Below are positions 20,601 to 56,763 of a DNA stretch of 64,000 nt, piece by piece (within the stretch, counting starts at the first letter, position 1; each line of letters starts with the position of its first letter). The position numbers and the translations under genes are program-made. The stretch covers positions 25,717,564 through 25,781,563 of the forward strand of contig CAIIXF020000007.1 of NCBI GenBank assembly GCA_903813345.2, read 5' to 3'. Under the pieces are notes generated by a model that was not told the DNA's origin, did no database searches, and saw nothing but the letters and a program-made list of their open reading frames with translations. The DNA is from Owenia fusiformis. Taxonomy: Eukaryota > Annelida > Polychaeta > Sabellida > Oweniidae.

Positions 20601-23600
20601 CTGATTGTCCAGTGTTAGATTGTGCTGGTACTTGAAGGTTTACAGTCTGTGAATTAGCAGGGCTTGCATCACCTGTTTGTGATTGCGTTTCTGGTATACT
20701 AGTAGTAGGGCTACTTTGGCTGCTCATAATTGTAGAAAAGCTTCCATCTAATGAGTCATTAGTAATTAAGTCTTGTGTGAATCCAGGTGGTGTTGAAAGT
20801 AGCTGACTTACTGTGGAAAAGTTGGGACTAGCCATAGTGCTAATTACAAGTCCCTATACTGTGTAGGAAATTAGCTAGCTCACCAAGGCAGTGCCAAGTA
20901 TGGAGGCTCCAATGTTAGAAAATGAGATTTCCAACTGCAAATGTTCAGAAAATGTACCTTGAATTGTTCAGTAATATAATCACAATAGTACTTCCTGAGT
21001 TCTTCTCCTGATGCACTGTATGTTTATACTAACTCCTATACAGTCCAAAACCACAACTGGTTTCTATATCCATGTATTTTTGATAAATTATGTGGAGCCA
21101 AATTTACTTGTTATTGCTATCTAGCAACCTTGACCTTGTTTCATTTAGGATTAATAATATATTGACAAAATATGAATAAAAACTAGAAATACACATGTAT
21201 AACAAATTTCCCCGTTTATCATTTTTTGTGAAGTGGCGAAATTCGATACTTGTGTAATATGGCCATTTTTATATTTTTATATTTCTCACTTTTCATATTG
21301 ATCAATCTCCATATATTTCACTTATTCTCAATATAACAGGTCCCTAAGCTACTATTGTATCAGTGCCAAACGTTTTATAATAACTTTGTTTGCCATGCCT
21401 TACCCCCCTATCACACCAAACTAGTTCTTACCCGTTCTTGTCAGTCCTACGAAAACGTCGTCAAACGGGCTCAATCTGGCTGTGGTCGGGAAATATGTCT
21501 GAAATAATCAGCTTCTTCGTTCTTAAACAGTCTTCAATACGTCCATCTCGTTCGCAGTTCGTTCAGGTCGCACCACGTCGGAGTGCAACGTCGTAGAACG
21601 CGTCCCTTAGTCTAGAAGGTCAACATGACCTGATTACAGAACGGTATGGTCGTCATCGAATTTTGAATCGATTCAAAATTCTAAAATTACATTCCCGTCT
21701 GAGAACGTTCATAAAGTTCGTAAATAGACCTTAGAAAGTTGCAGCTACGTTCATTCCGTTCGCACACAGTTTAAAACCAGTTTTGAAGAACGCAGTGGCA
21801 ACTTGTTTGGTGTGATAGCTATATTTTTGCTAACTCGTTCATAAGCAGTGTTAAATACGTTCTTAATCAGTTTAAACCCGTTTGCAATTAGTTCTACCTC
21901 GTTCTCAACACGTCCGCAGACAGTTCAACTCGTTGTTAAAACGTCCCTAGTAGGATTGAAGTACGACGGTTCCGTTTGTTATACGTCCAGCTCATCGTTA
22001 GTACGTTGTCACTCGTTCTAATTGTAGAACGTGACGACCACGAGAACATTTTGAGCATTGTCTAAGTTCTAGAGGACCTACCCGTTCGAGTACGTTCGAT
22101 GAAGTTTGTAAATAGATCCCAAACGGTTCTTAGTAGGTCGAGTCCGTTCGTATACAGTTGAATCCCGTTTTCGAGAACGCAGTGAGAACTAGTTTGGTGT
22201 GATAGTAGGGTTACCTTTTCACTATATTTTGTTTCAAACCAGTTTTTAGCTTTTCATGTTGTATGTTCAATGTTGTTTTGTATTGTGTGACTCCAATACA
22301 TGGAAAACATGCACTCACTTGAGTTTTGGGTGTTGGCCCAGCCTCAGTAGTTGCTTACCCTACTATCACACTAAACTAGTTTTCACTACGTCACGAAAAC
22401 GGGCCTCAACTGTGTGCGAACGGACTGGACATACTTAGAAACATTTGGGGTCTATTTGCAAACTTCATCGAACTTACGCGAACGGGTAGGTCCTCTAGAA
22501 CTTAGAACATGCTCAAAATGTTCTCGTGGTCGATATGTTCTACAATTAGAACGAGTGACAACGTATCAACGACGAGCTGGACGTACTACGAACGGAACCG
22601 TCGTACTTCAATCCTTCTAGGGACGTTTTAACAACGAGTTGAACTGTCTGAGGACGTATTGAGAACGAAGTAGAACTAATTGAAACGGGTTTTAACTGAT
22701 TAAGAACGTATTTAAGACTGCTTATGAACGAGTTAGCAAGAATATAGCTATCACACCAAATAAGTTGCCACTGCGTTCTTCAAAACTGTTTTTAAACTGT
22801 GTGCGAACGGAATGAACGTAGCTACAACGTTCTACGGTCTGTTTACGAACTTCATGGACTTTCCCGGACGGGGAATGTGATTTAAAATTTTGAATCGATT
22901 CAAAATTCGATGGCGACCATACCGTTCTGTAATCAGGTCATGATGACCTTCTAGACTAAGGGACGCGTTATACGACGTTGCACACCGACGTGGTGCGACC
23001 TGAACGAACTGCGAATGAGATGGACGTATTGAAGACTGTTTATGAACGAAGTAGCTGATTACTTTAGGCATATTTCCCGACCACAGCCAGATTGAGCCAG
23101 TTTTACGACGTTTTCGTAGGACTGGCAAGAACGGGTACAGTTCGGGACATAAATAAATGACATATTCTGGCAGAAAGTTCAAAGCTAATCGTTTTCTTCG
23201 GATTACAATGTTTTTTTAACTTTTCAGCATGAATATAGGGTTGGGACCTCAAAACCACGGAATGCCGGAGTGGCACCCTTGGGCAACTCTCTACAAACCA
23301 TTTCTTATACCCCCCTAAGAAAATCTACTGGGGGTACTATAAGACACCTTTATATATCAGACACTAATAAAGATATAGACTTGAAATTTTCAGGAATTAG
23401 TTTAAGTATGATGCTTAATCTGTATGGTGAAAATCAAGAAAAAATCTTAATCCGTTGCTATAGCAACAGTAATAGATCACTATTAGTTACCTTAGAAATG
23501 TATTATTTTTTGTGGGTTTTCAGCATTTTCTTCATATTCTTGATTCTTTAACTATCTTAAACTATCTGAAGCACATAGCATGATTAGAGGTGAAGATAAA

Positions 23601-31800: not shown

Positions 31801-34800
31801 TTCATGCTACTGTTACGTATTTTCCTCGATTATTTGAGTATGGTCCGTCTTGTTCAATGTCACTGCTACGTATTTCACTCGATTATTTGAGGATGGTCTG
31901 TCTTGTTCATGCCACTGTTACGTATTTTCCTCGATTATTTGAGTATGGTCCGTCTTGTTCAATTTCACTGCTACGTATTTCTCTCGATTATGGTGTGTGA
32001 TTGAAATGCTTGGTTGTGTTTGATTATTTGAAATACTTTGCTATGAACTATGAATACGTTAGAAACGTTCACGTTTGATTAGCAATTGATTGATAGAGGC
32101 AGGGAGTGGATCTTGGTTTTAAATCTGATCTCAAGTTACTATTTCAAAGTATATCAATGAGATCGAGAAATAATGGCTCAACATTTTTCTTGTTTCAAAA
32201 ATGAAAGTTCGTAAAATTGACTTATTCATTTGATTCCTTCGTGATTCACACGTAGCAATACTTACGCATGCGCATTCGTCGTTTTCTGGACAAGGGCAGC
32301 CGTGCTTTGTCGGAAAACTAAGCATGACTGATAATGAAAATATTACTTTTTGTAAATATTATCATGATTGTGATTTACTTGATAAGTGCTTATGCCAACA
32401 TATATCTACAAAAGTTAAGAATAATACGGATTTTACGTACATGTTCAACATTAGACATTTTAGTTGATATTGATAGCAGCTGTCTCTGTTATCACAATGC
32501 TTTTTGATGACTACGTGCCTGTCATTTTCTTTCAGCAAGGTCGGTTCAACGAAGCGAAGGTTTTAATGGAACGCATGCGCAGAGTCATAAGCCAGGCTGA
32601 GGTCCAGGGGGATGCACTCTTTTGGCAACATTGGTACCGAATGGCTGCTCGACAGTATTTAGAAACAAGGAATTTCAATGTAGGAAAGCTATCTTATCGA
32701 TTGGTTATTGTTTTGATTTTTCGATAAGTCTCTCGTATGCGTTCAGTATTGAAAAACCGAGCAACTACATGTAGGTACAAAGAACTCTACTCCAGAATAC
32801 GCGTATTGTTAACTTTAATTTAATTTATTTGACTCATAAAAAACTACACTTAAAGAGTGATCAAAGGTTACACTTAAAGAAGAATTAATTTATGCCGGCG
32901 TAAAAGGGTAGGAGGTCCTATCAAATTATGGTCCTACTCCCCATTGATCTATATTGTGACCTAAATACAGTTCTTTCCCTCATTATCTTATACGCAACCA
33001 GGGCCAGTAAGGGCCGTTAAGAAAGGGGACCATAATCCCCAGGGGACCATCATTTCTTTGACACTGGTGTAAAAAAAATATGGTCCCCTGGGGATTATGG
33101 TCCCCTTTCCTTACGGCCCTTATTGGCCCTGACTGTGTATAAAGAGTAAGGAAAATAATTGTAATTAGGCCACCATATAAATCAATAGAGAGTAGGACCA
33201 AAATTTGATAGGACCACCTACCCTTTTACACCGACATCGAGTGTGCAAATTTGTTATAGATTATTCTTAAAATTCCCAATAGATGTATCGTTTCAGTTAC
33301 CAAATACGCACGCAATTGACCTGGAAACTCCGAACTGGAAACCCCTTGATGCAACTGAATTTTGGTCACCCCATTCTGAAGTCGGCTTCCATCTTGCAAG
33401 AGGCCTCCAAGCCATCCAAACCAAGTCCTCCGACAGTGGAACCATGATAGAAGGAATATTTGATCGCATCCGTCAAATCAAATTTGAAATGGCTCCGCAA
33501 GATTGGCCATATTTGAAAAAGACTGTCGTGTTTTTGACAATGCAGTTGAATTCAACGTATGAAGCAAGGTAAGGCTACGATGTATATTACATGTATTACT
33601 GCACGCGATTTACTTGTTGGACAATGGATCGAACATGGGTAAACATAATTTTTTTTTTTTTTTTTTTATATTTATTTATTTATTCATTTATATAATATAA
33701 CAGTACAATATAGTCCTGCGGCTGGGCTTAAAGCATTATTAGCCACATCTAGAATACTTATATAAAGGGGTAAAAAATAAAAATTGTAAGCCTAAATGGT
33801 AAAAGGCTTAAACTGCCTGGGGTCTTTCGAAACACTGTCTGATAAACAGAGCACTGGATGCAAGTATTTCATGGTTCTTACTAAGAGAAAGAGATGGGTG
33901 ACCAAAGAGAAATAAGTCAAGTTTATCTTGTCTATTTTTGCATAAATGCCTGTAGTTCGGAAGTAAATCAAAAAGCTTCTGTTCAAAGCTTATGTAGAAT
34001 GGTTGTCGAATAGGACAAGAAAATATTACATGTTTTGTTGTTTCACTTTTGTCACCACATATACATTCAGGTGAGTTTACATTGACAAAGTTATGGGCAT
34101 GAAGGTGAGCATTAAATATGAGGTCAACTCTTATTCTATTCAAATATATCTCGTCAGCCCTATTAATGCCCAACTCTGATGCCAATATAATATCATTATT
34201 TAAGAACAATTGACTAATATTATTCTTAAAAGTCTTGATTGTATCACAGTTTCTAATCTTGGAGCTCAAACCGTTGAACTCAGTCATACACAAGAAGGTG
34301 GGAGATCTAGAGCGTATTCTTGAGCGACGTAGTGGAACTTGAAAAGGTATTACATTACGAATATCTCTGATATTTGGTTTTTTGTATTTGTCAAAAATTG
34401 TTGAAACATAATGAGGTACATTTCCACATTTCACTTTGAACATAAATGTAAGTCTATGTATCTTTCTACGAATCTCCAAGGTTGGCCAATTCAATACATG
34501 GAACAGTTTAGTAGACGAGGTTCCAGCAATTGTACCTGCACATATTGTTGCAGCTTTATAATAAAGCCTATCTAGACTCTTCAGAGTTGTTAGGTTTGCA
34601 CATCCGTACAAAATATCATATAAATCAAAATGAGGCAGAATATAAGAGTTGAACATAAGCTTCAGATGTTTACCACCCAATTTTCTTGATATACTTTTCA
34701 AGTGGTTTAGCAACTTATCAATTTTATTAGCTGATTCGATAATATGTGGTTCAAAGGTAAGCTGGCTATCAAAAACTAAACCAAGATGCTTGTGGTTATT

Positions 34801-37329
34801 TACCTTTGGAATAATGTCACCACCCAAAGACAAAGAAGGAGTAAGCAATTCTGCTTTCCTAGGGTCAAAGAAATTTAACTCAGCACTTTTACTCGCTTTG
34901 AACTTTAATTTCCATTTGTCAGACCAATTGTAAATTGCATCTAGATCATTTTGTAATTCAGTCATCTTTATATCTATATCACCAGCTTGAAATGGCTGGT
35001 AGATGGACGTATCGTCCGCATAGAGATAACATCTAGAGTCAATATGGTCAGTTATGTCATTGATATAGATAAGAAAAAGAAGAGGGCCTAATATTGATCC
35101 TTGGGGAACTCCAGAGTTGATGTAACTTTCTTTTGACCATTCAGAACTTTGGCCATCGATGACAACTTTGACCCTGCGATTAGTTAAGTATGATCTCAAC
35201 AAAGAGCATACATCAGGACCGAAACCATAACTAGGAAGTTTATTCAAAAGAAGGTTATGAGGAATTGTGTCAAACGCCGAGATGTCCAAAAATGCCGCTT
35301 TTACATTAAATCCTGCATCTAAATGCTCAGTCAAGTAATCAATTATTGTCAGTAACTGAAATTGAGTACTGTGGCCAGGTAAAAACCCACTTTGTAGATT
35401 ATATAAAAACCTTATTAAATATGATTCTCTCAGTAACTTTTGAAAGACAGCTTAAAAGTGTAATTGGCCTATAATTTGATGGAGTATTTTTGTCACTTTT
35501 CTTATGAATGGGAACAATGTTACCAAGTTTCCAGCATTGAGGGAAACAGTTTGTTGCAAAAATCTTGTTGATAAGTTTAGATAATGGTTGAGAGAGAGCG
35601 GGGGCTGCCAGTTTTAGCATTTTATTACTAATTTGGTCTGGTCCAGAGGCCTTATTTACATTTAAATTCACCAACGTTTCGAAAACTTCATTGTAATTTG
35701 TTGACAGCATGTTAATTGACTCATTTGTACGAAGATGTAAAAAAGCATTATCAACAGGCCCTTATAAACATAATCAATAGAGAGGTTTCACCCAACGGGT
35801 AATAGAAGCTAGAATTTATCCTCACCCGCGTTTCGCTATCTACGTTTGACTCCTGGGCATTAATCTGGTTAATTCGTTACGGATTTCAGATACGTAGATG
35901 AGCTTAAAACGTTGTGCAAAACCTCTCTATTATTAGCCTTAGCTTTTTACAATCTATTTTGTCAAACATGGACATCGCCATATATCTACAACCTTAATTT
36001 TACCTTTGGAAAATAAACCAAAAGATGAGCATGTTCAATATTTTTCAATCAAATCTACCTTTAGCCAAGGGAGAATTGAAGAGGCGGTTGAGATCATGAA
36101 AGAGGCCGTGGTCGTCCAGGAGTCGATGGTCTTTTCAGGAAGTGATCCCACTCTACTTTATGTTTCTACATGGGAATTCCTGGGAGATATGATCCTCAAA
36201 TACAAGCTAGAGGATCACTATGACACAGCAATAGAGATGTACAAGAAAGCTCTGTTAGCGAGACCCAGAAGAGCAGGTATTGGACGCTTTAGGATAATAA
36301 AAAATAATCATTGAAACATGTTACTCACACACACGCTCAAATATGAAACAAAGTTTGATTTGCTTTAATATTGGACCAAGAAAAAAACTCGCAGAGAAAA
36401 AAGCATTTGAAGTACAGAGATCATTAGTAGTGCATGCCTATGCTAACACCCCCAGTCACATTTCCCATGGCGACCGTGCGGTCTATCATTTATAACTCCG
36501 AGTTATAATTTCTACGACTACCCTGCGGCCTGTAAAAAACTGGATACACCGTACGGAGACCGCAAGGCGACCATAGTTTTCCTACGCTCGCCGCAGAAAT
36601 TCACTGATTTAATTGTTCTGCGGTCGACTTACGGCCGCCGTACGACAAATGTGACTGGGGTGTAAACAAAGTGCATGTTTTAAACTACTCTTGATTTAAA
36701 AGATCGCGACACTTCTATAAAAATGAATGTATCATGTAATACAAACAACTTCGCCATCTTTCAATGACATTGACAAAAATTTGATATATTTTTTTTTGAT
36801 AATTTATCGTAAGCTCTAATGTGGTATGTTTGAGCTGTTGTTGGTGTCAAATGAAAGATAAGGTTCTTATCAATTGCAATACATTGGACATACTATGAAA
36901 TTAAAATAACATATATATTTCCAATCGCTCTTGAAAGTGTATTGTAGAAAAATGGACATTTGTACGCAAAGATATTGATGCCTTCTAATATAATCTGATG
37001 AGAAAAGGGAGGTTTCACTTCTAGGGAACGATAGAGGGTGTTTTACTTGAAACATACCCTGGTTAAATTGTGAGTGTTAAACAACAATATATTTTCCAGC
37101 ATCTGTCTATGGTTTGTACAAACTCTACAAAAGGAAAAGACTCGACAGTGAAATGAACTCTCAACTGGAGGAGATTCGAAAAATCTGGTCCGATCCAGAT
37201 ACCGATTTTGAAGCTCGGGAAGAGATAGAGAAGTCGGATGATGGCACAAGCGGACAATACTCGATTCATAGTTCTCTGAACATCTTCATTGTTCTTCTTT
37301 GTGCTTTGAAGCTGATTTCATTATTCTGA
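14700..37329 (+). CDS. Secreted/GPI-anchored TPR protein, six exons
   Basis: The exons are 14700-14856, 30315-31090, 32536-32679, 33297-33568, 36065-36276 and 37100-37329. All junctions are GT...AG, the phases (1,0,0,2,1) match at every join, and the total is 1791 nt, giving 596 aa plus TGA. Residues 1-23 form a signal peptide. The mature part (LGEIEFNVTT, then HFMLGLKLLSCFWYDFAEKEF, HMPAHIYIRLGMW, QGRFNEA and DTAIEMYKKAL) resembles the family of TPR proteins common in bacteria and in some invertebrates, where helical repeats act as a protein scaffold. No enzyme motif is visible. The C terminus ends in a hydrophobic tail (NIFIVLLCALKLISLF) after a Gly/Ser-rich stretch, as in GPI-anchor signals. 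Function is unknown. Intron 1 is 15.5 kb of transposons, and intron 4 carries a LINE. Confidence 0.85.
15559..19128 (-). CDS. LINE ORF2: endonuclease-reverse transcriptase
   Basis: The protein is 1189 aa. An N-terminal basic stretch precedes an AP-type endonuclease at about residues 45-285 (LTLVFNNVQHLG, MGMSETFLT, VMGDFNGR, IGSDHCMLISYF). The reverse transcriptase spans about 530-830, with ISKAYDVIDRDR, GVKQGCVLSTTLFS and the catalytic FADD near residue 777. A C-terminal zinc-binding motif, CEECPDKIETLEHRLFEC, lies near residue 1105. The protein makes target-primed cDNA copies of the element's RNA. No stop or frameshift is seen. The clade within the LINEs was not resolved by eye. The C terminus matches the remnant at 2556-3310. 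Confidence 0.9.
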   Translation of the reverse strand: MASPPVPVSNSYNSNDTCKSKRPSPNMRPNRGRHRRSRKHKNNVHVNNLTLVFNNVQHLGLAKQQELKRFLDNNKVHIMGMSETFLTPNSSLSAMFSNHMLHSKPRLGRQGGGIGILTSNTDIKVTNDNLLNSKTDDFERYWIRTKVGDKNLALCVAYYPNDGTSNDRADQLTEELISNVATLESMGDLICVMGDFNGRLREFRNEKRPSPNGNLVELLIEVSNLNVLNLSPRCKGKYTWFRNNLVSTIDYILINDKFNHCFDNMIIDEAGNFSIGSDHCMLISYFNIQAAKADNISGPFPENRESPKIWKIDNDSDWKLFEEKLSFRLSNWKSSSFKSLDEMWLNWREIILDVANEVIGHKTISHKLRSFWDNELKQLIKNRKEANKFCRFWRASGITDLEAFQDIWNIYLERKEKVTLYIKRKMIENHIKVITKNASNKSSSSKSYWNTLNMFNQKSNAPIRIAHPKYPDIIIDDPKQVSAIIREYWAKAGNKNRNKHSSVNDFSKDLKHMEMNLTDTADPTKSIIDQVYFDRECLATHIKKLTNGKAMGTDLIPNEFLKYGGQAICETLFDIFTQCKDFEKFPVQWKEGVLKPLHKSGDQNIQDNYRGITVTSNVYKLFCSIVNVQLTSFCEEENIFGEFQGAFRKGLRLENNIFTMKALCSLRKSERKSTYLAFLDISKAYDVIDRDRMFLALWKKGVRGKLWRLLRQMYHDNKTKVAFGNGNETDWFTQPYGVKQGCVLSTTLFSIIMTDLYDQLINAKVGIKFEEQLIPTLMFADDIVLFANTENELNAMLKIVNEFAVKWGFNFSQKKSKVLVIGKKTDKTKEWSFGDLKLSEVHSYKYLGYIFHKNLRDNDHMNETALKAKKLNGYIKYTLNRHMNVKRIDFGNQLYKSKLLSSVLHSCAIWASDNKSYETRLKSMQYNAGRAIFDIKGTPAYEAIVSDLGWTPMKYTVLKRQVEYYIYIKSKKPTSLNARLLASMEKRFEMGKGNHWNYVKHIDATLKLMQLSGISETAENISYSYHKQILDLSKKYINDGILEKSSLDKYHQLNLIPKKGRATYLYNDYDFQSSRIKFLARAGKFNLNSEKSKWKNLNPPISPYCEECPDKIETLEHRLFECPSYETARNKFYLEMKNQVPSPVLEVYLESETSDKLKWIIGDEARILGGHDISVTVDRLNKILLKNIF
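19168..20835 (-). CDS. LINE ORF1: esterase-like, CCHC zinc-knuckle RNA-binding protein
   Basis: The protein is 555 aa. It has a Ser/Thr/Pro-rich N terminus (1-95), a basic segment with RRRSKRRLARS and a GRPRK AT-hook-like motif (about 100-130), and a coiled coil (about 155-205). An SGNH-hydrolase-like domain follows (about 218-375), with LIGSSIVRDV, YLQVGSNDCARG and AADHLHLSDSG supplying the Ser, Asn and Asp/His blocks. Near 470-510 are two zinc knuckles, CKKCGEPGHLVTTC and CHLCKELGHKQSLC. Esterase-type ORF1 proteins are known from several LINE clades and are thought to help form the RNP. The start was chosen because the ORF is open from this Met. Confidence 0.9.
   Translation of the reverse strand: MASPNFSTVSQLLSTPPGFTQDLITNDSLDGSFSTIMSSQSSPTTSIPETQSQTGDASPANSQTVNLQVPAQSNTGQSGVSPPTHTPTNSPNEPPQASGVPTRRRSKRRLARSQPARPSTVISKPRRGRPRKTAQASQGANKPQDPTSSHPIDLLTVMNMVRDLNESVKNLNNMQKTNEDLVKQLARITADKEELHRENAALRNQLSNASTMPNNTLPSLLIGSSIVRDVDSTKLVNTEVKCLRGGTISDVHKTLSSGDTNYNTIYLQVGSNDCARGNDVNLICEDYKLLLAGAKQRSKDIIVSSVTPRMDDSDAQSKIEQLNGFLLCHCSDEKVTFIDNDKIFKLQDGSINDGFLAADHLHLSDSGTNRLLKNLNISTKASDITLPKNKRAPPKRTTQRPQQSTQKTPPSPYESDANNTPQHPPQHTTRPWNNRRPTSNGYINTSKAKQHNAYKPTTHNNNAMNNKIKCKKCGEPGHLVTTCWHPATVRCHLCKELGHKQSLCPRSLQQSDSNMNGSKTDNYPRVKPQSLLQHKNSYPFNGPSYESFNRFSVLS
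21403..22210. mobile_element. 808-bp TTA-flanked element, copy 1
   Basis: The left end is CCCCCCTATCACACCAAACT and the right end is the inverse of CCCTACTATCACACCAAACT. TTA flanks both sides (21400-21402 and 22211-22213), the 3-bp TWA-type duplication typical of PIF/Harbinger elements. An internal GTTTGGTGTGATAG near 21815 repeats the terminus. The interior carries degenerate CGTTC/CAGTTC/CGTCC motifs every 10-13 bp. The ORF at 21390-21596 is not conserved enough to be a gene. Confidence 0.75.
24508..25017. repeat. 36-bp minisatellite (~14 copies)
   Basis: The unit is built from AAAGATGCCACCTTACACGA and GCACACTCACTCACCC. Because 36 is a multiple of three, several frames stay open for 87-213 codons, giving 12-residue repeats such as KMPPYTSTLTHP. 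This is a by-product of the period. There is no independent evidence of a gene, and the array lies in the centre of a non-coding transposon. Confidence 0.9.
25365..26035. repeat. Tandem repeat, ~170-175 bp unit, four copies
   Basis: Blocks around TACTCATTCATGATAACCATCA, TGATTGCTCAGATGAG, ATTATGCCAATGTCTAGACT, ATGCCAACCTCT and TTCATTATGATACATGTACTA recur in the same order at about 25370, 25530, 25698 and 25877. It directly follows the 36-bp array in the centre of the foldback element. Confidence 0.7.
27797..28110. mobile_element. TIR element ending CAGGGGCGGATCTGG
   Basis: The left end CAGGGGCGGATCTGGG pairs with the right end CCCAGATCCGCCAGTG. ACTTG flanks both sides (27792-27796 and 28111-28115). 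The interior alternates GGCCC and AAATTTT tracts and has G and C homopolymer runs around 28059-28097. Termini of this type are familiar from hAT-like non-autonomous elements, but the visible duplication is 5 bp rather than the usual 8. A partial second copy is at 30045-30255. Confidence 0.7.
28228..28308. repeat. Single arm of the palindromic MITE family of 32893-33236
   Basis: It matches the right arm of the complete copy: ATAAATCAATAGAGAG, AGGACCAAAATTTGATAGGA, CCACCTACTCTTTTACAC. Only one arm is present here. Confidence 0.7.
28600..28816. repeat. GTCC/GTCTGTC microsatellite-bearing repeat
   Basis: The palindromic CTCACATGAGTGAGCTATTG is followed by a (GTCC)n run near 28637-28655 and a second (GTCC/GTCT)n run near 28775-28813. 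Repeats pairing AGCTCAC.TGAGTGAGCTATTG with GTCCGTCC runs are common in marine invertebrate genomes. Confidence 0.6.
29223..29275. repeat. Short hairpin
   Basis: CCGATTGAGTGTTTTGTTCAA is inverted, with one extra base, as TTGAACAAAATACTCAATCGG after a short AT-rich loop, giving a stem of about 21 bp in intron 1 of the TPR gene. Confidence 0.6.
29458..29643. repeat. Short TIR-bounded repeat
   Basis: AGACGGCTATCTATC at the left is inverted at the right as GATAGATAGCCGCCT. The interior has two ACGTAAT-type half-palindromes. It is about 186 bp, probably a small MITE. Confidence 0.5.
30045..30255. mobile_element. Truncated copy of the CAGGGGCGGATCTGG element
   Basis: It shares with 27797-28110 the order AAACCCCAAAA.TGG, TTGAAAATGTTAGGCCCATT, AAGGCCTTAAAAGGCC, CGGCCCACCCAAAGTGGG and a terminus CAGATCCGGCAGTG. 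The left terminus is missing. It ends only 59 bp before exon 2 of the TPR gene. Confidence 0.65.
31096..31992. repeat. 52/53-bp minisatellite with 105-bp higher-order unit
   Basis: About 17 monomers alternate between two types, TTCATGCCACTGTTACGTAT (52 bp) and TTCAATGTCACTGCTACGTA (53 bp), giving a 105-bp dimer. As 105 is 35 codons, an artefactual 247-aa frame of 35-residue repeats runs through it. The array starts about six bases after the exon-2 splice donor of the TPR gene and fills the 5' half of intron 2. It is intronic, not coding. Confidence 0.9.
32893..33236. mobile_element. Complete palindromic MITE
   Basis: The two ~150-bp arms are near-perfect reverse complements, from TGCCGGCGTAAAAGGGTAGG to its inverse CCTACCCTTTTACACCGACA. 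The centre has GGGGACCATAATCCCCAGGGG and its inverse around TTTGACACTGGTGT. There is no ORF. It lies in TPR intron 3, ending 60 bp before exon 4. One-armed relatives are at 28228-28308 and 57908-58078. Confidence 0.8.
33650..35764 (-). mobile_element. 5'-truncated LINE with 10-bp target-site duplication
   Basis: TAAACATAAT lies immediately outside both ends (33640-33649 and 35765-35774). The element's 3' end, at left, is a poly(A) seen as a T run at 33650-33667, followed by ATTTATTTATTT. The 5' end is truncated within the RT domain. This is a clean record of target-primed integration into TPR intron 4, in antisense orientation. Its sequence differs from the larger LINE at 15392-20940, so it is a second family. 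Confidence 0.9.
33808..35710 (-). pseudogene. LINE reverse transcriptase, 5'-truncated and frameshifted
   Basis: The frame 35710-35399 carries SGPDQISNKMLKLAAP, PIHKKSDKNTPSNYRPITLL and LSKVTERIIFNKVF. The frame below 35405 continues with LYNLQSGFLPGHSTQFQLLT, then GVPQGSILGPLLFLIYIND and the catalytic YADD. A single-base slip in a T run near 35405 joins them. One codon is missing from the RT block that normally reads DISKAFDT (here DISAFDT). The C terminus has a zinc-binding block, CICGDKSETTKHVIFSC, like that of the large LINE. The style is that of jockey/CR1-type elements. It is truncated and not functional. Confidence 0.85.
36447..36662. mobile_element. 216-bp TAA-flanked MITE
   Basis: The left end CACCCCCAGTCACATTT is inverted at the right as AAATGTGACTGGGGTG, with TAA on both sides (36444-36446 and 36663-36665). 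The interior is GC-richer than its surroundings and rich in CGG/CCG half-sites. The 3-bp TWA target suggests a PIF/Harbinger-type mobiliser. It lies in intron 5 of the TPR gene. Confidence 0.7.
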
Positions 37330-49286: not shown

Positions 49287-51770
49287 ATGAAGTGGGAAAA
49301 GCTACATTTCTGCATTTTTGCATGCCTAGTGGTATCGATCAGTTCAAGACGAAATAAAGACAATTACGTGGACAATCAGTCGATTCTAATCGAGAATGGT
49401 AGGTGCAAAATCTCCTGTGCCAACTCTACTGATGGTTGTAGTTTTCTCTGTGAGGGGGTTAACTTAACAAAAGGATTTCCGGAAATCCCCGGATATGTGA
49501 CTGATTTAAAAATCAAATCCTGCATTATGTCAACCATGATCAACTATTCATTTGGCATACTGCCACTTCTAAGAAGTATAACAGTAATGAATTCGAAAGT
49601 GAAAACAGTTTCGAATGATGCTTTCAGCATGATGTCAAACCTAACAACAGTGATAATTACAGGCAATTTGCTAAAATCAATTCCACCAAACATATTTTGG
49701 TTGCCTTTGTTAAAGCACGTGGATTTATCCAGCAATCTTATCAGGGATATCAACTTCCCTGACAATTTAACAACAGGTGGAAACATATCTATAAATCTGT
49801 CAAATAACTCAATCGGCGGCATACTGAATGGAACATTCCGCGAATTCACAGGTTTTGATGCAGTGTCGTTATCTTTGGCTCATAATAATATTTCAAGTAT
49901 TAAAGATAATACATTTTCTGGAATCAATCGTTTTAACACTCTCGATCTGAGTAGGAATGACTTCAAGACTAAGGTCTATCTTATGGACATAGGATATAGC
50001 ATACAGACAATACCAACTAAGGAGTTGAAATTGGTCAGGTGCAACTTGAATCGTCATTTGGACTCGTCTATGTTTCGGCTGATGTCCAAAACAGACATTG
50101 AGATCCTTGACCTTAGCGAAAACAGTTGGGATATATGGCCAAACGATACATTGATACACCTCCCTAAGCTCCAACATTTCACCGCCGATCACAATCCGTG
50201 TTTTGCTTTTTTCTATGCTGCAGAAGAATTGACAAATGCCCGATACGTCTCACTGGCCTCGAATGCGTTACTGAAAACTCAGATAGTTGGAATAATTTTT
50301 AAAAATTCGCCGAAGCTAGAGTATCTTGACGTAAGCAGCAACCATTTCCAATTCAAAATCAATTTTCATCTATTGAATATTTCATCGCTGAAAACATTCA
50401 ATTTTTCTAACAATAACCAAAGAATACACAAGGCAAGGCGCAAAATGTATTTTAACTCGTTAATGCCGAATCTAGAAATCTTGCGACTTCACGACATTAA
50501 TGCGGACTGGGTTAATTATATTGACCTGGGAGATTTTGTAGTTACAAACATGTCAAAACTAACAGAGCTAGATCTCAGTCACAATAAAATTTGTATAAGT
50601 TGTTCAAGTGTAATTGACAAGTTTAAAGGCTTGGATCGGTTACATAAACTCAATATGTCATATAACAGCCTTATACGTGCAACATTCGATGATATGAATG
50701 CGTTTTTCGATCAACTCCCAACACTTGAAATCATAGATTTGTCGTTCAACAGCTTACAACATCTGCCATATAACCTTTTCAATGTAATGCCTAATCTAAC
50801 TACGGTTATTCTTGACGGTAATCGCTTGACATCTTTCTCCGATAAGTACTTGAGGAACAATCACAATTTGGAGAAGCTATATCTACAAAGAAACGCACTG
50901 ACTTGGATAGATGGAAATACGTTTGCAAATATAAAATTACAATCCTTGGACATCCGGTCAAACGCATTTTATTGCAGCTGTGAACTGATTGGTTTAAGGA
51001 AATGGCTCAATTCCAGAAGCGCGACTATTAAAGTATATGGGGAAAACCAATTCTGCAAAACTCCTGGAATATACAACGACAGAACCATCAAGACATTTGA
51101 ATTACCCTGGCTTCAATGTTACAACCATCTTCTCATAATGTTATCGGTATGGATTGGTGCTCCACTTTTGCTTGCGAGTGTGGTCGCTGTCATTGTTTCA
51201 TATTTCCGTTGGGACATTAAATACTGGTGGATCCTTCGGAGATCGCGACGTTCAAGAAATGGATACACAGAGGTATCTGGATTGGGAGATAACATATTCA
51301 AATATGATGGCTTTGTTTCTTACAATAGCGATAATGAAGATTGGGTGACCCAACAACTTTCACCAAATCTGGAACATTCTGATGATGACGTCAACGTCAA
51401 ATTGTGTATTGCGGAGCGTGACTTTACTCCAGGAGAGTTCATTGCAGACAACATCGTAAACTCAATAAATGAGAGTAGGAAACTCATGTTTGTTATAACA
51501 GAAGAGTTCATCAAAAGTCAATGGTGTGCATTCGAGCTAGAAATGGCGCATTTGAGACAGTTCGATGAAAAGAAAAACCTAATCGTGCTCATATTTTTAG
51601 ATAAAATACCGAAAAAGAAATTACCAAGGAAGATCCGTTTACTCATGCGCCATGTGACCTACGTTGAATGGGACGAAAAAAGTACTCGTGCCCAGCGGCT
51701 TGTGTGGAAGAAATTAAAGCTTAGCTTGCTCGACTTTCCGTGTGATCTGACCTACGGAGTTACCCCTTAA
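49287..51770 (+). CDS. Toll-like receptor 1 (intronless)
   Basis: The protein is 827 aa in a single exon. It has a signal peptide (1-20), then a Cys-bearing N-terminal cap (CKISCANSTDGCSFLC) and a run of leucine-rich repeats (about 60-555), for example LKHVDLSSNLIRDI, LEYLDVSSNHFQF and LEIIDLSFNSLQHLP. A single LRRCT Cys cluster begins NAFYCSC (about 557-610), followed by a transmembrane helix (about 613-637) and a cytoplasmic TIR domain (about 670-815). TIR box 1 is YDGFVSYN and box 2 is LCIAERDFTPGEF, with the conserved RD..PG. The usual FW box 3 is not evident. One cysteine cluster places it in the single-cluster class. It should sense ligands outside the cell and signal through MyD88-type adaptors, by family knowledge. 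The tandem paralogue is at 54256. Confidence 0.95.
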   Translation: MKWEKLHFCIFACLVVSISSRRNKDNYVDNQSILIENGRCKISCANSTDGCSFLCEGVNLTKGFPEIPGYVTDLKIKSCIMSTMINYSFGILPLLRSITVMNSKVKTVSNDAFSMMSNLTTVIITGNLLKSIPPNIFWLPLLKHVDLSSNLIRDINFPDNLTTGGNISINLSNNSIGGILNGTFREFTGFDAVSLSLAHNNISSIKDNTFSGINRFNTLDLSRNDFKTKVYLMDIGYSIQTIPTKELKLVRCNLNRHLDSSMFRLMSKTDIEILDLSENSWDIWPNDTLIHLPKLQHFTADHNPCFAFFYAAEELTNARYVSLASNALLKTQIVGIIFKNSPKLEYLDVSSNHFQFKINFHLLNISSLKTFNFSNNNQRIHKARRKMYFNSLMPNLEILRLHDINADWVNYIDLGDFVVTNMSKLTELDLSHNKICISCSSVIDKFKGLDRLHKLNMSYNSLIRATFDDMNAFFDQLPTLEIIDLSFNSLQHLPYNLFNVMPNLTTVILDGNRLTSFSDKYLRNNHNLEKLYLQRNALTWIDGNTFANIKLQSLDIRSNAFYCSCELIGLRKWLNSRSATIKVYGENQFCKTPGIYNDRTIKTFELPWLQCYNHLLIMLSVWIGAPLLLASVVAVIVSYFRWDIKYWWILRRSRRSRNGYTEVSGLGDNIFKYDGFVSYNSDNEDWVTQQLSPNLEHSDDDVNVKLCIAERDFTPGEFIADNIVNSINESRKLMFVITEEFIKSQWCAFELEMAHLRQFDEKKNLIVLIFLDKIPKKKLPRKIRLLMRHVTYVEWDEKSTRAQRLVWKKLKLSLLDFPCDLTYGVTP

Positions 51771-51941
51771 TCGTGAAATATATATGCATATGATTAGGTT
51801 GCAGCTTCAATGTATGCTATCTATTTGAAAATATAAACTTGCTTTGCCGAGTGTTTGGATGTGGGAATTCCCATAAGACGTAAAAATATGTGTACATCAT
51901 TTTTTGATTTGACTTGTGGAATATGTGCTTTACTATACCCT

Positions 51942-51947
51942 AATAAA
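51942..51947 (+). other. Candidate poly(A) signal of TLR 1
   Basis: AATAAA lies about 175 nt after the TLR stop codon, in the context CCTAATAAACG. Motif and distance are both plausible. Confidence 0.5.
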
Positions 51948-52237
51948 CGTGCATATGATGTATACGTGTACTGCGGTGGTTGCAGCATCACTTGTTGTAC
52001 GTTACTTATGTACCATCTGTAAATAGGAAATATTTATTCTCGGTGCTTTATCATTTATGAATATTACTTACTTCTATATGAAATGATTGTACAAATGGTG
52101 AATGCCTTTGAGGGAAATAGCGCATGTTCCCGAAGCTGCATGCCGAGGGAACAAGTCAGTAGACAGGATATTCCCGAGGGGAAATATTTATACTACTTCC
52201 TTAAAATGTGGCAGTCACTATTTGTTTATTATACATA

Positions 52238-52517
52238 CCGGGTGGGCATAAAAAATGAGCCGTACTTCGGCACCTGATATTTCCAGGAAAGATGGAGGAC
52301 CAGTTGATTAATTTCTCAAGGGTAACATAGGGAACAGGCGTTTTGACTCATATTTTTTGTATTTTGATCCCATTACCAAAACTTTTCAAGGATGAAACTG
52401 AAATTAATTGTTATATAGCGAGATAAGTGGTTTCACGTGCACATTTTTAAAAGTAGAGGTACGAGGGTCATGGAGATATCAGGTGACAAAGTACGGCTCA
52501 TTTTTATGCCCACCTGG
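52238..52517. mobile_element. 280-bp TA-flanked MITE
   Basis: The left end CCGGGTGGGCATAAAAAATG, then AGCCGTACTT, is inverted at the right as AAGTACGGCTCATTTTTATG, then CCCACCTGG. TA lies on both sides (52236-52237 and 52518-52519). The TIRs extend to about 50 bp. There is no ORF. A mariner-type mobiliser is likely. Confidence 0.75.
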
Positions 52518-52519
52518 TA

Positions 52520-54255
52520 TACGCATAGTAAACAAAAAAGAAGGTCTTTTAATTACAACATTAATGCTTGTAGGTCACTAATGGCATATTATAAATAAAA
52601 AATAGATATAACATTTAAAGAGATAGATGGTATGTATTAGATATATTTACATCAACAAAGCGCGCTCCTTTAGGTTAAAGTGTGTTTTATGTTAAAGTGT
52701 GTTTTATGTATATCAGATACATTTGCATTATCAATTAAAGTTATTTTTGTGATTTATAAAATTAATTTGCAAGAATACCGGGACGTTGCCGTAGGGCTGA
52801 ACTTATCTGAGCCCCATTGATAGTTATACAAATTAACAAATGCCCAGTAAAAGAAAATATTATCTGTCCAAGACAAGAAAAGGTATTTCACTTTTTGTGA
52901 ATCTCCCCGACCAAGAAGTCACATTTTTAAAGAAAATTGAATTTTCAAAGCTGATGAACTCTTTTCAAAACCACATTTCTGGATGGAATTTTACATGTAG
53001 ATTCGAAATATGACATCAGTTTGACTGAATTTTGAATTGTTAATGACGTTAATTAAGATAATTTCTACTCGCACCTAGTCTATTTCACCAATGGCTAAAA
53101 CAATTTCATCACTCCTTGGCAGTGATATAAAAATGGTAAGGATGAGTAGTCCGCTCTGCAGCGTATGGCTAGGCTATGTATGAGTCCACAGAAAAGAACA
53201 CAAGGAATTTCAAATAATAGTTCCTTGCTCCGTTTCTCATGATTAGATAGTAAACCGTGGCCGTGGAAATAACCCAAAGATTATTGCTCACCTCTATCGG
53301 TCGTCAAGATTACTACTATAGAACAATAACAATATAAGAAGATATATAGTCTTGTCAACGTATACATTACGTTTTCGATATTATCTTTAATATAACCCAC
53401 ACATTGGCATTTGTATCATAAAAATCGAACCAGTTAATACATTCACAAGACTTCCGATTTTAGCACTTAAGAAAAACATAAACATATGTTTTGTATGAAA
53501 ATCGTCCGTAAAATGAACATACTTTTGGATTGGGACAATTAAAATAGATAACAAGTGTTTTTGCGATTTGATTTACGGCTGGGCAAAATCTGACGTAACC
53601 TTTTGGTCAGATGCGTTGGTCCTTTAATATTTGCGTTGACGTTGCGTTGCGCTCGGTAAATGGTTCAATTCTTGTTTTGAGCTACAGTGCAATTGAAGAC
53701 GATACAGGGAAACACAGGGTATTGGAAATTCCAAACTGTTCCAGCATATCTTTTGCATGTATTTTCAGAAATTAAATACAGCCTTTACAATATTTAAGAA
53801 AGGAACATAAAATGTATTAAAATGAAGCGAAATGAAAAATGAAACAATTTTAAGGGTGGCAATAACTTATAGATTATGAAAGAAAGAGATGAATCATATA
53901 TCAAATACCCTGTGTATAACATTAAAAACGTGAACAGGGAAGTATAACTCAGACCGCATTGATGTGATCGTGTTTAAGTTTCATTTAAATAACAATATAT
54001 ACGGCTTGGTTTTTATCGAACAAAGAGGCATCTACTTCCTCGAAGTTCTTACTAAATTTCGCAAACACACGATCCACCTATAGCTATATATAGCTAGACA
54101 GGTGAGGTAATTTCATTTGGCTTCCTTCTTACGACCGATGTGAAGAACATTATTATGATTTTATAACAAACATAATTAACACTTCGTGTTCAGTTTGGAA
54201 TTGAAGTTGTCTTGATTTAAACGTGCTATCAAAAATCAGAAAGTGAAAGTGAAGG
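52520..54255. other. Intergenic region between the two TLR genes
   Basis: No supported ORF. A tandem pair of TTTTATGTTAAAGTGTG-type blocks lies near 52675-52705. The promoter of the second TLR should lie near 54000-54250, but no TATA box or other element is distinctive. Confidence 0.3.
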
Positions 54256-56763
54256 ATGATGAGGGTGGCAAAGATACAATTCGGCGCACTGTCATGCCTC
54301 GCAGTTCTATTGAATCTGTCCAGTTTAGCGCATTGTACAAGCTCTGATGTGAAAAGATTAAATGGCGATGGGATTCCAATAGCTAATGGCACGTGTGATC
54401 TAATATCTTGTGGCAACTTTACTGATGGTTGTATTTTCCTTTGTCAGCGAGTTGACTTAACAAATGGACTTCCGAAGCTTCCTGGAAATGTGACTGATGT
54501 AATAATTGACTCCTGTCATATGCCAGTCGTTGCAAAATATCCGCATGGTTTGCTACCATTGCTGAGGAGTATAGAAATAACGTATTCTAACGTGAGAACA
54601 GTTTCGAATGATGCATTCAGTATAATGTCGAACCTAGAAACAGTGATAATTACAGGCAATTTGCTAAAATCAATTCCACCAAACATATTTTGGCTGCCTT
54701 TGTTAAAGCATGTGGATTTATCCAACAATCTTATCAAGGACATAAGCTTCCCCGATAACATTACTGTAAGAGGCAGAGATATATCTATAAACTTGTCAAA
54801 TAATACAATCACAGGTATATTGAAAGGAACATTCTACGAATTCACATATTTCGACGCAGTTTCGTTATTTCTGGCTAGAAACTATATTACCAATATTAGT
54901 CGTCATACATTTGATGGCATCAGGCGTTTTAACAGTCTTGACTTGAGTGGGAATAACTTCAGGAAAGGGGTCTCACTGTGGGATGTAGGAGAAAGCATAC
55001 AGGAAATACCAACTAAAGAGTTGAAATTGGTCAACTGCAAATTGAATCGTCATTTGGATTCGTCAATGTTTCAGATGATGTCAAGATCGGACATTGAAAT
55101 GCTCGATCTTAGTAACAACAGCTGGGAACTGTGGCCAAGAGACACTTTGAAGCACCTTCCATATCTTAAAAACCTAACGATCAACCACTGCCCTTATTTC
55201 GCTTTCTTCGAAGCCGCAAAGGAATTGGAAAATGCTACATACGTGTCACTAAGCTCAAATGCGTTACTAAAAACACAGATCATAACGGAAATTTGTAAAT
55301 CATCTAAGAAGCTAGAGTATCTAGACGTAAGCAGCAATCATTTCCAGTTCGAAACCAAGTTTAGATCGAGGGTTTCTTCACTGAAAACATTTGATTTTTC
55401 TAACAACAACCAAAAATCAAACAAGGCTATGCGCAAAGTGCGTTATAATGAAATAATGCCCAACCTAGAAACTCTTAAACTCAGGAACATCAATGCAAAC
55501 TGGGTTAACTATATGGAAGTAGGCGACATAGTTCTGACAAACATGTCCAAACTTGGAGAATTAGATCTGAGTTACAATAGAATTGGTATCAACAGCTCAA
55601 GTATAGGGAGCAACTTTAAAGGCTTGAATCAGTTACACAAACTAAATATTTCATATAACAACATAGCACACGTCTCCTTAGATACTTTGAATGCATTCTT
55701 CCATGAACTACCAACACTTAGAATTGTAGATCTGTCATTCAACAATATACAACGTATTCCATATAACCTCTTCAGCCGAATGTCCAATCTAACCATACTT
55801 ATTCTTGAAGGAAATCGTCTGACATCTTTCTCTGATAAATACATGAGGAACAACCTTCATTTGACAGAGTTATGGTTGCAGAGGAATGCCTTAACTTGGA
55901 TAGACGCAAACATTTTCACCCCATTACATTTATCAATTCTGGACATAAGGCAAAATGCTTTCTATTGCAGTTGTGACCTCGTGAATTTTAAAAGATGGCT
56001 TAATACCAAAAGTGAGGCCATTACGGTACTAGGCGAAGATCAATCCTGCAAGACTCCTGACATATATGAAGACACATCCATTAACAAGTTTGAATTGCCA
56101 TGGCTCCAATGTAACAATCACCTGACCATAATGGTATCAGCATGGATCGCTGCACCGGTTTTACTTGCGAGTATCGTTGCTGTCATCATCTCGTACTTTC
56201 GTTGGGATATTAAATACTGGTGGATCCTTCGAAGATCGCGAAATTCCAGAAAGGGTTACACAGAGTTATCTGGCTTAGGAGATAACATATTCAAATATGA
56301 TGGCTTTGTTTCTTACAATAGCGATAATGAAGAATGGGTGACCGAACAACTCATTCCAAATATGGAACATTCTGATGATGACGTCAATGTCAAATTGTGT
56401 ATTGCGGAGCGTGACTTTACTCCAGGAGAATTCATTGCAGACAACATCGTAAACTCAATAAATGAGAGTAGGAAACTCATGTTTGTTATAACAGAAGAGT
56501 TCATCAAAAGTCAATGGTGTGCATTCGAGCTAGAAATGGCGCATTTGAGACAATTCGATGAAAAGAAAAACCTAATCGTGCTCATATTTTTAGATAAAAT
56601 ACCGAAAAAGAAATTACCAAGAAAGATCCGTTTACTCATGCGCCATGTGACCTACGTTGAATGGGACGAAAAAAACAAGCGTACTCAGAGTTTGGTTTGG
56701 AAGAAATTGAAACTGAGCTTATTGGACAATCCGATCGATCTGACATATGGAGTTACCCCTTAA
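54256..56763 (+). CDS. Toll-like receptor 2 (intronless tandem paralogue)
   Basis: The protein is 835 aa, one exon, with the same plan as the TLR at 49287. It has a signal peptide (1-27), an N-terminal cap CDLISCGNFTDGCIFLC and leucine-rich repeats such as LKHVDLSNNLIKDI, LEMLDLSNNSWELW and LRIVDLSFNNIQRIP. An LRRCT with NAFYCSCDLVNF precedes a TM helix around 620-645 and the TIR domain from about 678. TIR boxes 1 and 2 are identical to the neighbour's at the amino-acid level. The ectodomains differ throughout, so ligand range may differ while downstream signalling is shared. It lies 2.5 kb downstream on the same strand. The 3' flanks also share an AATATAAACTTGCT segment, so the duplication included the 3' UTR. 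Confidence 0.95.
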   Translation: MMRVAKIQFGALSCLAVLLNLSSLAHCTSSDVKRLNGDGIPIANGTCDLISCGNFTDGCIFLCQRVDLTNGLPKLPGNVTDVIIDSCHMPVVAKYPHGLLPLLRSIEITYSNVRTVSNDAFSIMSNLETVIITGNLLKSIPPNIFWLPLLKHVDLSNNLIKDISFPDNITVRGRDISINLSNNTITGILKGTFYEFTYFDAVSLFLARNYITNISRHTFDGIRRFNSLDLSGNNFRKGVSLWDVGESIQEIPTKELKLVNCKLNRHLDSSMFQMMSRSDIEMLDLSNNSWELWPRDTLKHLPYLKNLTINHCPYFAFFEAAKELENATYVSLSSNALLKTQIITEICKSSKKLEYLDVSSNHFQFETKFRSRVSSLKTFDFSNNNQKSNKAMRKVRYNEIMPNLETLKLRNINANWVNYMEVGDIVLTNMSKLGELDLSYNRIGINSSSIGSNFKGLNQLHKLNISYNNIAHVSLDTLNAFFHELPTLRIVDLSFNNIQRIPYNLFSRMSNLTILILEGNRLTSFSDKYMRNNLHLTELWLQRNALTWIDANIFTPLHLSILDIRQNAFYCSCDLVNFKRWLNTKSEAITVLGEDQSCKTPDIYEDTSINKFELPWLQCNNHLTIMVSAWIAAPVLLASIVAVIISYFRWDIKYWWILRRSRNSRKGYTELSGLGDNIFKYDGFVSYNSDNEEWVTEQLIPNMEHSDDDVNVKLCIAERDFTPGEFIADNIVNSINESRKLMFVITEEFIKSQWCAFELEMAHLRQFDEKKNLIVLIFLDKIPKKKLPRKIRLLMRHVTYVEWDEKNKRTQSLVWKKLKLSLLDNPIDLTYGVTP

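What the first reader, a model, noticed from the sequence alone, without database searches (positions are those of the whole stretch)
51288..56673. TIR-domain DNA of the two TLR genes looks homogenised by gene conversion
The 393-nt blocks 51288-51680 and 56281-56673 differ at only 11 positions. Over the last ~309 nt only four differences remain, all synonymous third positions. Right after the block (GACGAAAAA), and across most of the ectodomain, the genes diverge at both the DNA and protein level. Protein constraint alone would not keep synonymous sites identical, so a recent conversion tract with a sharp 3' edge is the simplest reading. The result is diversified sensing with a shared signalling module.
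Basis: seen in the sequence. Interest (0 to 1): 0.75.

Follow-up and report, generated by a model that had tools for sequence, protein, structure and literature searches.

The report
Converted TIR domain in Toll-like receptor twins
Two neighbouring immune-sensor genes that differ widely in their sensing parts have fairly recently had the DNA of their shared signalling part copied from one to the other, a process already known from mammals and birds and here seen in several other gene pairs of the same animal genome.

Summary
Two single-frame Toll-like receptor genes, A (49287-51770) and B (54256-56763), differ at 11 of 393 positions in the block. dS is 0.92 over 666 upstream codons, 0.08 in the block and 1.79 in the 29-codon tail. 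None of 20,000 silent-site shuffles reaches the observed tract. Codon constraint is excluded as main cause: block dS to the next relative C is 1.14 and 1.24, and the unlinked paralogues D, E and F differ in the block about as much as in the ectodomain. Most of the flanks align no better than shuffled sequence, so the duplication is old. Gene conversion fits best.

Refinements: seven of the 11 differences sit in 29 nt (51341-51369), so the tract may be patchy; a second, weaker candidate tract lies in the LRR ectodomain (49638-49742).

The pattern recurs: 6 of 10 tandem pairs with diverged ectodomains carry a tract overlapping the TIR, against 7 of 68 pairs on different chromosomes and 0 of 7 distant pairs on one chromosome. 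One cluster gives a directional TIR swap. Mammalian TLR1/TLR6 and avian TLR1A/B are direct precedents; the within-genome, linkage-dependent recurrence is the new part.

The parts
49287..51770 (+). gene A: single-frame Toll-like receptor, 827 aa (LRR ectodomain, hydrophobic segment, TIR)
   Evidence: ORF; Pfam LRR_8 1.2e-36 and TIR 4e-21; hydrophobic windows starting at residues 611-624
54256..56763 (+). gene B: single-frame Toll-like receptor, 835 aa, tandem paralogue of A (70% protein identity)
   Evidence: ORF; Pfam LRR_8 1.4e-34 and TIR 3.6e-21; identity
51285..51681 (+). conversion tract in gene A (TIR coding), both edges inside the gene
   Evidence: identical runs; dS; permutation
56278..56674 (+). 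conversion tract in gene B, counterpart of 51285-51681
51341..51369 (+). 29-nt island inside the tract with 7 of the 11 differences and all 4 amino-acid differences, just after the YDGFVSYNS motif
   Evidence: scan test
56334..56362 (+). counterpart of the island in gene B
49638..49742 (+). candidate second, short conversion tract in the LRR ectodomain of A (dS 0.09 over 35 codons); weaker evidence
54631..54735 (+). counterpart of the candidate ectodomain tract in B

Best explanation
A and B are an old tandem duplicate of a single-frame Toll-like receptor. Long after duplication, one gene served as template for repair of the other by non-allelic homologous recombination without crossover (interlocus gene conversion). 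This overwrote about 400 nt encoding the TIR domain, possibly patchily around a 29-nt island, and perhaps also a short LRR stretch of similar silent divergence. Shown: the tract, its edges, its youth relative to the duplication, and the absence of codon constraint strong enough to explain it. Shown in other gene pairs of this genome: recurrence in tandem pairs, and one TIR swap whose simplest direction is L006 into L005. Inferred: that strong protein conservation of the TIR keeps enough DNA identity for recombination to start there, while ectodomain divergence blocks it or selection removes it, so that receptors keep a common signalling domain while their sensing domains diversify. The direction between A and B is not resolved.
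For: Block dS 0.08 against 0.92 upstream and 1.79 downstream. Permutation 0 of 20,000. At residues conserved between A and B, identical codons are 95.9% in the block against 60.9% before it and 59.1% after it; for the unlinked pair D-F the values are 74.4, 79.8 and 83.3%. 5' flank (700 nt) and 3' flank (800 nt) align at 46% and 45%, inside the range of shuffled controls (41-49%), except that the first 110 nt after the stop keep 66% (shuffled 38-57%), still far below the block. Survey of 66 TLR frames, 208 pairs: for tandem pairs with ectodomain pS 0.15-0.65 the median TIR/ectodomain pS ratio is 0.38 (n=10); for pairs on different chromosomes it is 0.88 (n=55). With each gene used once, Mann-Whitney p is 0.0048, 0.0038 and 0.020 for three pS ranges. 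L005: ectodomain groups with L007 (100/100), TIR with L006 (98/98), AU tests rejecting the alternatives at 4e-6 and 9e-4; its 5' flank follows L007 and its first 60 nt after the stop follow L006. L030/L031 lie in opposite orientation yet share a tract.
Against: The TIR/ectodomain ratio is slightly under 1 also in different-chromosome pairs of moderate divergence (median 0.88), so a mild TIR-wide effect exists, and codon identity of A-C and B-C is also higher in the block (64% against 46%). Four of the 10 tandem pairs show no significant tract. The six young tandem pairs (ectodomain pS 0.02-0.15) show no lowering in the TIR, median ratio 1.57, range 0.46-3.71. The island and the weak second tract do not fit a single clean event. 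No individuals, reads or other species were available.
Confidence: 0.93

Rival explanations
1. Strong constraint on synonymous sites of the TIR (codon usage, an overlapping RNA or regulatory element) keeps the DNA identical without recombination.
For: The TIR/ectodomain pS ratio is slightly below 1 in different-chromosome pairs of moderate divergence (median 0.88, n=55); mean TIR GC3 (0.42-0.44) is higher than ectodomain GC3 (0.35-0.36).
Against: The same block diverges freely in A-C (dS 1.14), B-C (1.24), D-E (0.90), D-F (0.60) and E-F (1.01); strong lowering is mainly seen in tandem pairs.
Confidence: 0.02
2. Unequal crossing-over between tandem genes made chimeric genes that share the 3' half.
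For: Tandem arrangement in the same orientation; for L019/L020 the similarity runs on through the 380 nt of 3' flank examined, so that pair could be a crossover or a recent segmental duplication.
Against: In A/B both edges lie inside the gene, and tail and 3' flank are diverged, so two close crossovers would be needed. L030/L031 are in opposite orientation.
Confidence: 0.03
3. Young duplication with accelerated ectodomain evolution by diversifying selection.
For: Ectodomain pN is high (0.20).
Against: Ectodomain silent sites (dS 0.92), tail silent sites (1.79) and non-coding flanks are old too; selection on protein does not raise dS.
Confidence: 0.01
4. Assembly or polishing artefact copied the block between the genes.
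For: Reads could not be examined.
Against: 11 differences remain, four of them isolated silent ones; tracts of other divergence (TIR dS 0.04, 0.04, 0.15, 0.21, 0.24) occur in five other tandem pairs.
Confidence: 0.01

Closest known systems
Mammalian TLR1/TLR6 gene conversion (Kruithof et al. 2007, PMC2077338)
   Same: Tandem TLR paralogues, N-terminal ectodomain diverged, a C-terminal stretch including most of the TIR homogenised by conversion with an edge inside the TIR; recurrent; a few paralogue-specific residues kept inside the tract (abstract and Discussion part 1 of 2 read).
   Different: Mammalian tracts cover about 300 aa including LRR16-19, the cap and the transmembrane segment; here the main tract starts after the hydrophobic segment. 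There recurrence is across species for one gene pair; here it is across several gene pairs in one genome.
Avian TLR1A/TLR1B and TLR2A/TLR2B gene conversion (Huang et al. 2011, PMC3125219)
   Same: Converted C-terminal parts with diverged N-terminal or central part; TLR2A/B also has a separate N-terminal tract, like the candidate ectodomain tract here; identical codons at conserved residues 96-99% in the C-terminal part against 57-66% in the N-terminal part for groups 1 and 3 (abstract and section 17 read), comparable to 96% against 61% here.
   Different: Longer tracts; vertebrate genes.
Zebrafish NLR-B30.2 family (PMC4852459)
   Same: Conversion acts differently on two domains of a large immune-receptor family; in that paper conversion keeps NACHT domains homogeneous within groups (abstract passages and discussion passages seen by word search).
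   Different: Another receptor class; there conversion is also proposed to spread variation in the recognition domain.
EMR2/CD97/EMR3 and PILRA/PILRB receptor conversion, as cited in the Discussion of PMC2077338
   Same: Conversion homogenises one part of paired receptors while another diverges.
   Different: Other receptor families; not examined here.

Membership tests
Toll-like receptor | leucine-rich-repeat ectodomain | tested here: met
   Pfam LRR_8 E 1.2e-36 (A), 1.4e-34 (B)
Toll-like receptor | C-terminal TIR domain of the receptor type | tested here: met
   Pfam TIR 4e-21 and 3.6e-21; best solved matches of A's TIR are those of TLR2, TLR6, TLR1 and TLR10
Toll-like receptor | single transmembrane segment between them | tested here: met
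   apart from the N-terminus, one run of hydropathy windows of 1.6 or more, starting at residues 611-624 (A) and 622-634 (B) (Kyte-Doolittle only)
Toll-like receptor | ligand-dependent signalling | not testable with these tools
   needs experiment
TLR paralogues under domain-confined gene conversion (TLR1/TLR6 type) | low silent divergence in the C-terminal/TIR region with sharp edges | tested here: met
TLR paralogues under domain-confined gene conversion (TLR1/TLR6 type) | paralogues more alike than orthologues in the tract, the reverse outside it | not testable with these tools
   no genome of a related animal is held (one search states that G000 has no relatives here)
TLR paralogues under domain-confined gene conversion (TLR1/TLR6 type) | physical linkage of the partners | tested here: met
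   start to start 4,969 nt, same orientation
TLR paralogues under domain-confined gene conversion (TLR1/TLR6 type) | tract includes C-terminal LRRs and transmembrane segment (a trait of the mammalian tracts, not of the kind as a whole) | tested here: not met
   tract begins at 51285, after the hydrophobic segment; the three 40-codon windows at columns 600-640 have pS 0.46-0.61
GC-biased conversion signature | higher GC3 in converted than in unconverted TIR | tested here: not met
   12 genes of converted pairs against 54 others, TIR minus ectodomain GC3, p 0.58

The most novel reading that the evidence does not exclude
Across this animal's large TLR repertoire the TIR coding DNA behaves as an exchangeable cassette. 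Tandem partners, and in some cases genes on different chromosomes, repeatedly overwrite each other's TIR, so signalling domains evolve in concert in a network while ectodomains radiate independently.
Probability: 0.35. Interest if true: 0.6.

Novelty: new member of a known kind. Interest (0 to 1): 0.42.

Why it matters
It extends TIR-centred conversion of TLRs, documented for mammals and birds, to an animal genome with 123 TIR matches, where several paralogue pairs offer replicates. That allows a test of whether linkage and protein conservation alone (recombination needs identity) or selection for a common signalling partner decides where conversion tracts persist. It also warns that TIR-based trees of large TLR families can mislead: in the L005 cluster the TIR and ectodomain data reject each other's grouping.

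Tried and rejected
Codon constraint, young duplication and unequal crossing-over were tested and rejected for A/B. GC-biased conversion: no GC3 signal. Direction of transfer between A and B: not resolvable; in the block, sites where only A or only B agrees with relative C number 5 and 5. A third TLR copy or fragment in the window: none at E 1e-3 by tblastn with A and B. Recurrent retention of amino-acid differences in the stretch after the YDGFVSYNS motif: some also in L040/L041 and L009/L010 among the 14 pairs shown, in no consistent way; not claimed. Interchromosomal conversion of L023/L024 with L035: silent tracts significant, but the TIR data do not reject the ectodomain grouping (p 0.458), so it stays open. 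Species: not identified; one paper search on a guess (Owenia fusiformis, recalled from genome size and chromosome number) gave 0 papers and the guess is not used. Prior art outside vertebrates: searches (16 of 16 listed; 15 of 25; 2 of 2; 2 of 2; 4 of 4; 7 of 7; 10 of 11) listed no paper whose title or shown abstract start reports TIR conversion in an invertebrate TLR. One of them, on corals (PMC10236652, passages by word search), says gene conversion appears very rare there. The library lacks most subscription papers and the other listed papers outside Closest known systems were not opened, so this is no proof of absence. Correction: an earlier count said that the 5' flank of L005 matches L007 at 95% or more; the right range is 85-100% over the 12 windows.

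Full report
What was checked. Window genes A (49287-51770, 827 aa) and B (54256-56763, 835 aa) are single-frame Toll-like receptors: LRR_8 and TIR domains, one hydrophobic segment apart from the N-terminus, best solved relatives of A's TIR those of TLR2, TLR6, TLR1 and TLR10. They stand 4,969 nt apart, start to start, in the same orientation. The window lies in a 498-Mb assembly (G000) in which a TIR search gave 123 matches, a lower bound. I did not identify the species.

The block. The two 393-nt blocks differ at 11 positions; at the edges the identity runs from 51285 and to 51681 in A. NG86 estimates: upstream 666 codons dS 0.92 and pN 0.204; block 131 codons dS 0.08 and pN 0.016; last 103 codons of the block dS 0.07 and pN 0; tail 29 codons dS 1.79. 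In a silent-site segment test over 557 same-residue codons (176 different), the best segment is 51285-51695 with 5 differences in 124 codons and score 89; 20,000 shuffles reached at most 40. At residues conserved between A and B, the same codon is used in 95.9% of 121 block positions, 60.9% of 414 before and 59.1% of 22 after it.

Controls. Four further members of the subfamily were fetched: C (L001), D (L002), E (L003), F (L004). Block dS is 1.14 (A-C), 1.24 (B-C), 0.90 (D-E), 0.60 (D-F) and 1.01 (E-F), against ectodomain dS saturated, saturated, 1.15, 0.41 and 1.16. Silent sites of this TIR therefore change freely in these pairs. C lies on the same contig as A and B but about 6.3 Mb away; D, E and F lie on three other contigs. 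The 5' flank (700 nt) aligns at 46% and the 3' flank (800 nt) at 45%, against 41-49% and 41-47% for shuffled flanks; only the first 110 nt after the stop keep some similarity (66%, shuffled 38-57%). So the duplication is old and the block is young. GC3 gives no sign of GC-biased conversion (p 0.58).

Fine structure. Seven of 11 differences, including all four replacements, lie in 29 nt at 51341-51369. A uniform scatter gives this with P 0.0003 counting sites, but 0.058 if the four adjacent changes are one event. It may be an unconverted remnant between two tracts, or later change; I do not decide. A second segment, 49638-49742 in the ectodomain, has dS 0.09 over 35 codons, while A and B differ there from C at pS 0.73 and 0.82 and pN 0.32 and 0.36. 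Shuffling the whole gene gives P 0.155 for its 19-codon core; leaving out the main tract, segments overlapping it have P 0.043, 0.0054 and 0.0093 at three mismatch penalties, and 0.005 in the survey script. Conversion may thus have touched the sensing domain too, against a strict reading of 'TIR only'.

Survey. I fetched 60 more TLR loci, those in tandem clusters and a choice of others, not all of the 123 matches, giving 66 frames with A to F. 208 pairs passed the similarity and length filters. Among tandem pairs (same contig, under 100 kb) with ectodomain pS 0.15-0.65, the TIR/ectodomain pS ratios are 0.15 (A/B), 0.17 (L019/L020), 0.18 (L005/L006), 0.31 (L030/L031), 0.34 (L036/L037), 0.42 (L017/L018), 0.66 (L005/L008), 0.78 (L009/L010), 0.84 (L007/L008) and 0.98 (L006/L007); median 0.38. 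Different-chromosome pairs in the same range have median 0.88 (n=55, minimum 0.39); the four same-contig pairs over 100 kb apart have median 1.33. Against a general rule, the six young tandem pairs (ectodomain pS 0.02-0.15) have median 1.57 (0.46-3.71), and the saturated tandem pair L021/L022 has 1.03. With each gene used once, 7 tandem against 14 other pairs give Mann-Whitney p 0.0048 (0.0038 and 0.020 for two other pS ranges); that greedy choice dropped L005/L006 and L017/L018, two of the strongest cases. Pairs are not independent by descent, so these p values are a guide.

Tracts. In the ectodomain pS range 0.15-0.70, segments at P of 0.005 or less (1,000 shuffles a pair, not corrected for the 85 pairs) were found in 6 of 10 tandem pairs, 0 of 7 distant same-chromosome pairs and 7 of 68 different-chromosome pairs. 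Each of these 13 pairs has a tract overlapping the TIR; the L030/L031 tract (codons 611-794) starts inside the TIR and runs to the end and was labelled 'ecto/TM' by my script's majority rule, so the script's own count of tandem TIR tracts is 5. Two ectodomain tracts were found besides (A/B 118-152, L030/L031 349-430). The seven different-chromosome pairs are four gene groups. For L040/L041 the TIR tree joins the two at 98/98, whereas the ectodomain tree joins L041 with L042 at 81/85; for L023/L024 with L035 the TIR data do not reject the ectodomain grouping (p 0.458). Interchromosomal exchange is therefore only suggested.

A directional case. L005 has ectodomain dS 0.07 to L007 but TIR dS 0.31, and ectodomain dS 0.28 but TIR dS 0.04 to L006. 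Its 5' flank matches L007 at 85-100% in all 12 windows, and its first 60 nt after the stop match L006 at 59 of 60, with no clear similarity beyond. Trees give L005+L007 for the ectodomain (100/100) and L005+L006 for the TIR (98/98), AU rejecting the alternatives at 4e-6 and 9e-4. L006-L007 TIR dS (0.27) equals their ectodomain dS (0.27), so the simplest reading is that L005 is the recipient. L030 and L031 lie on opposite strands, which excludes simple unequal crossing-over there; for L019/L020 the similarity continues through the 3' flank, so that pair does not separate conversion from crossover.

Known or new. Conversion centred on the C-terminal/TIR part of tandem TLR paralogues is established for mammalian TLR1/TLR6 (PMC2077338: abstract and Discussion part 1 read) and for avian TLR1A/B and TLR2A/B (PMC3125219: abstract and one Results section read). 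The first of these already proposes the functional reading that the first-stage reader gives. A domain-wise action of conversion is also described for zebrafish NLR genes (PMC4852459, passages), while a coral study calls gene conversion very rare in its tandem genes (PMC10236652, passages). My searches listed no report in an invertebrate TLR family, but the library is partial and most listings were not opened. A/B is therefore a new member of a known kind; what adds interest is the within-genome replication and the linkage dependence.

Mechanism, with steps marked. Shown: a young tract in an old tandem pair, internal edges, no silent-site constraint that could explain it, recurrence. Inferred from established knowledge of recombination: repair of a break in one gene from the non-allelic copy. 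Inferred and untested: that conservation of TIR protein keeps DNA identity high enough for such repair, and that selection keeps or favours tracts in the TIR and removes them in the ectodomain.

Noticed in passing
window 15559-20835, - strand: Two neighbouring long ORFs that look like a non-LTR retrotransposon: one with endonuclease and reverse transcriptase (1189 aa), one with a GDSL/OSK-type hydrolase match and a zinc knuckle (555 aa).
   Followed up: no
window 33808-35334, - strand: A 508-aa ORF with part of a reverse transcriptase domain, probably a fragment of another retroelement.
   Followed up: no
L005, L006, L007 (G000 C10 about 19.01-19.04 Mb): L005 is a natural mosaic: upstream flank and ectodomain as L007, TIR and 60 nt past the stop as L006.
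   Followed up: yes
L023, L024, L055, L035: Ectodomain and TIR distances disagree (L024-L055 ectodomain pS 0.27 but TIR 0.52; L024-L035 0.57 and 0.38), suggesting TIR replacement, but the tree test is not significant.
   Followed up: partly
L018 (G000 C5 about 10.64 Mb): TLR frame short at its N-terminal end (587 aa against 852 in its neighbour L017). The stop read in its TIR match is probably just its own stop codon, which ends at 10645484, 15 nt before the match ends.
   Followed up: partly
L015 and L016 (G000 C1 about 45.12-45.14 Mb): Tandem pair with ectodomain dS 0.04 but TIR dS 0.09, and a stretch over the first about 490 codons with 3 differences at 471 silent codons: conversion or recent duplication favouring the ectodomain end, the opposite of A/B.
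   Followed up: no
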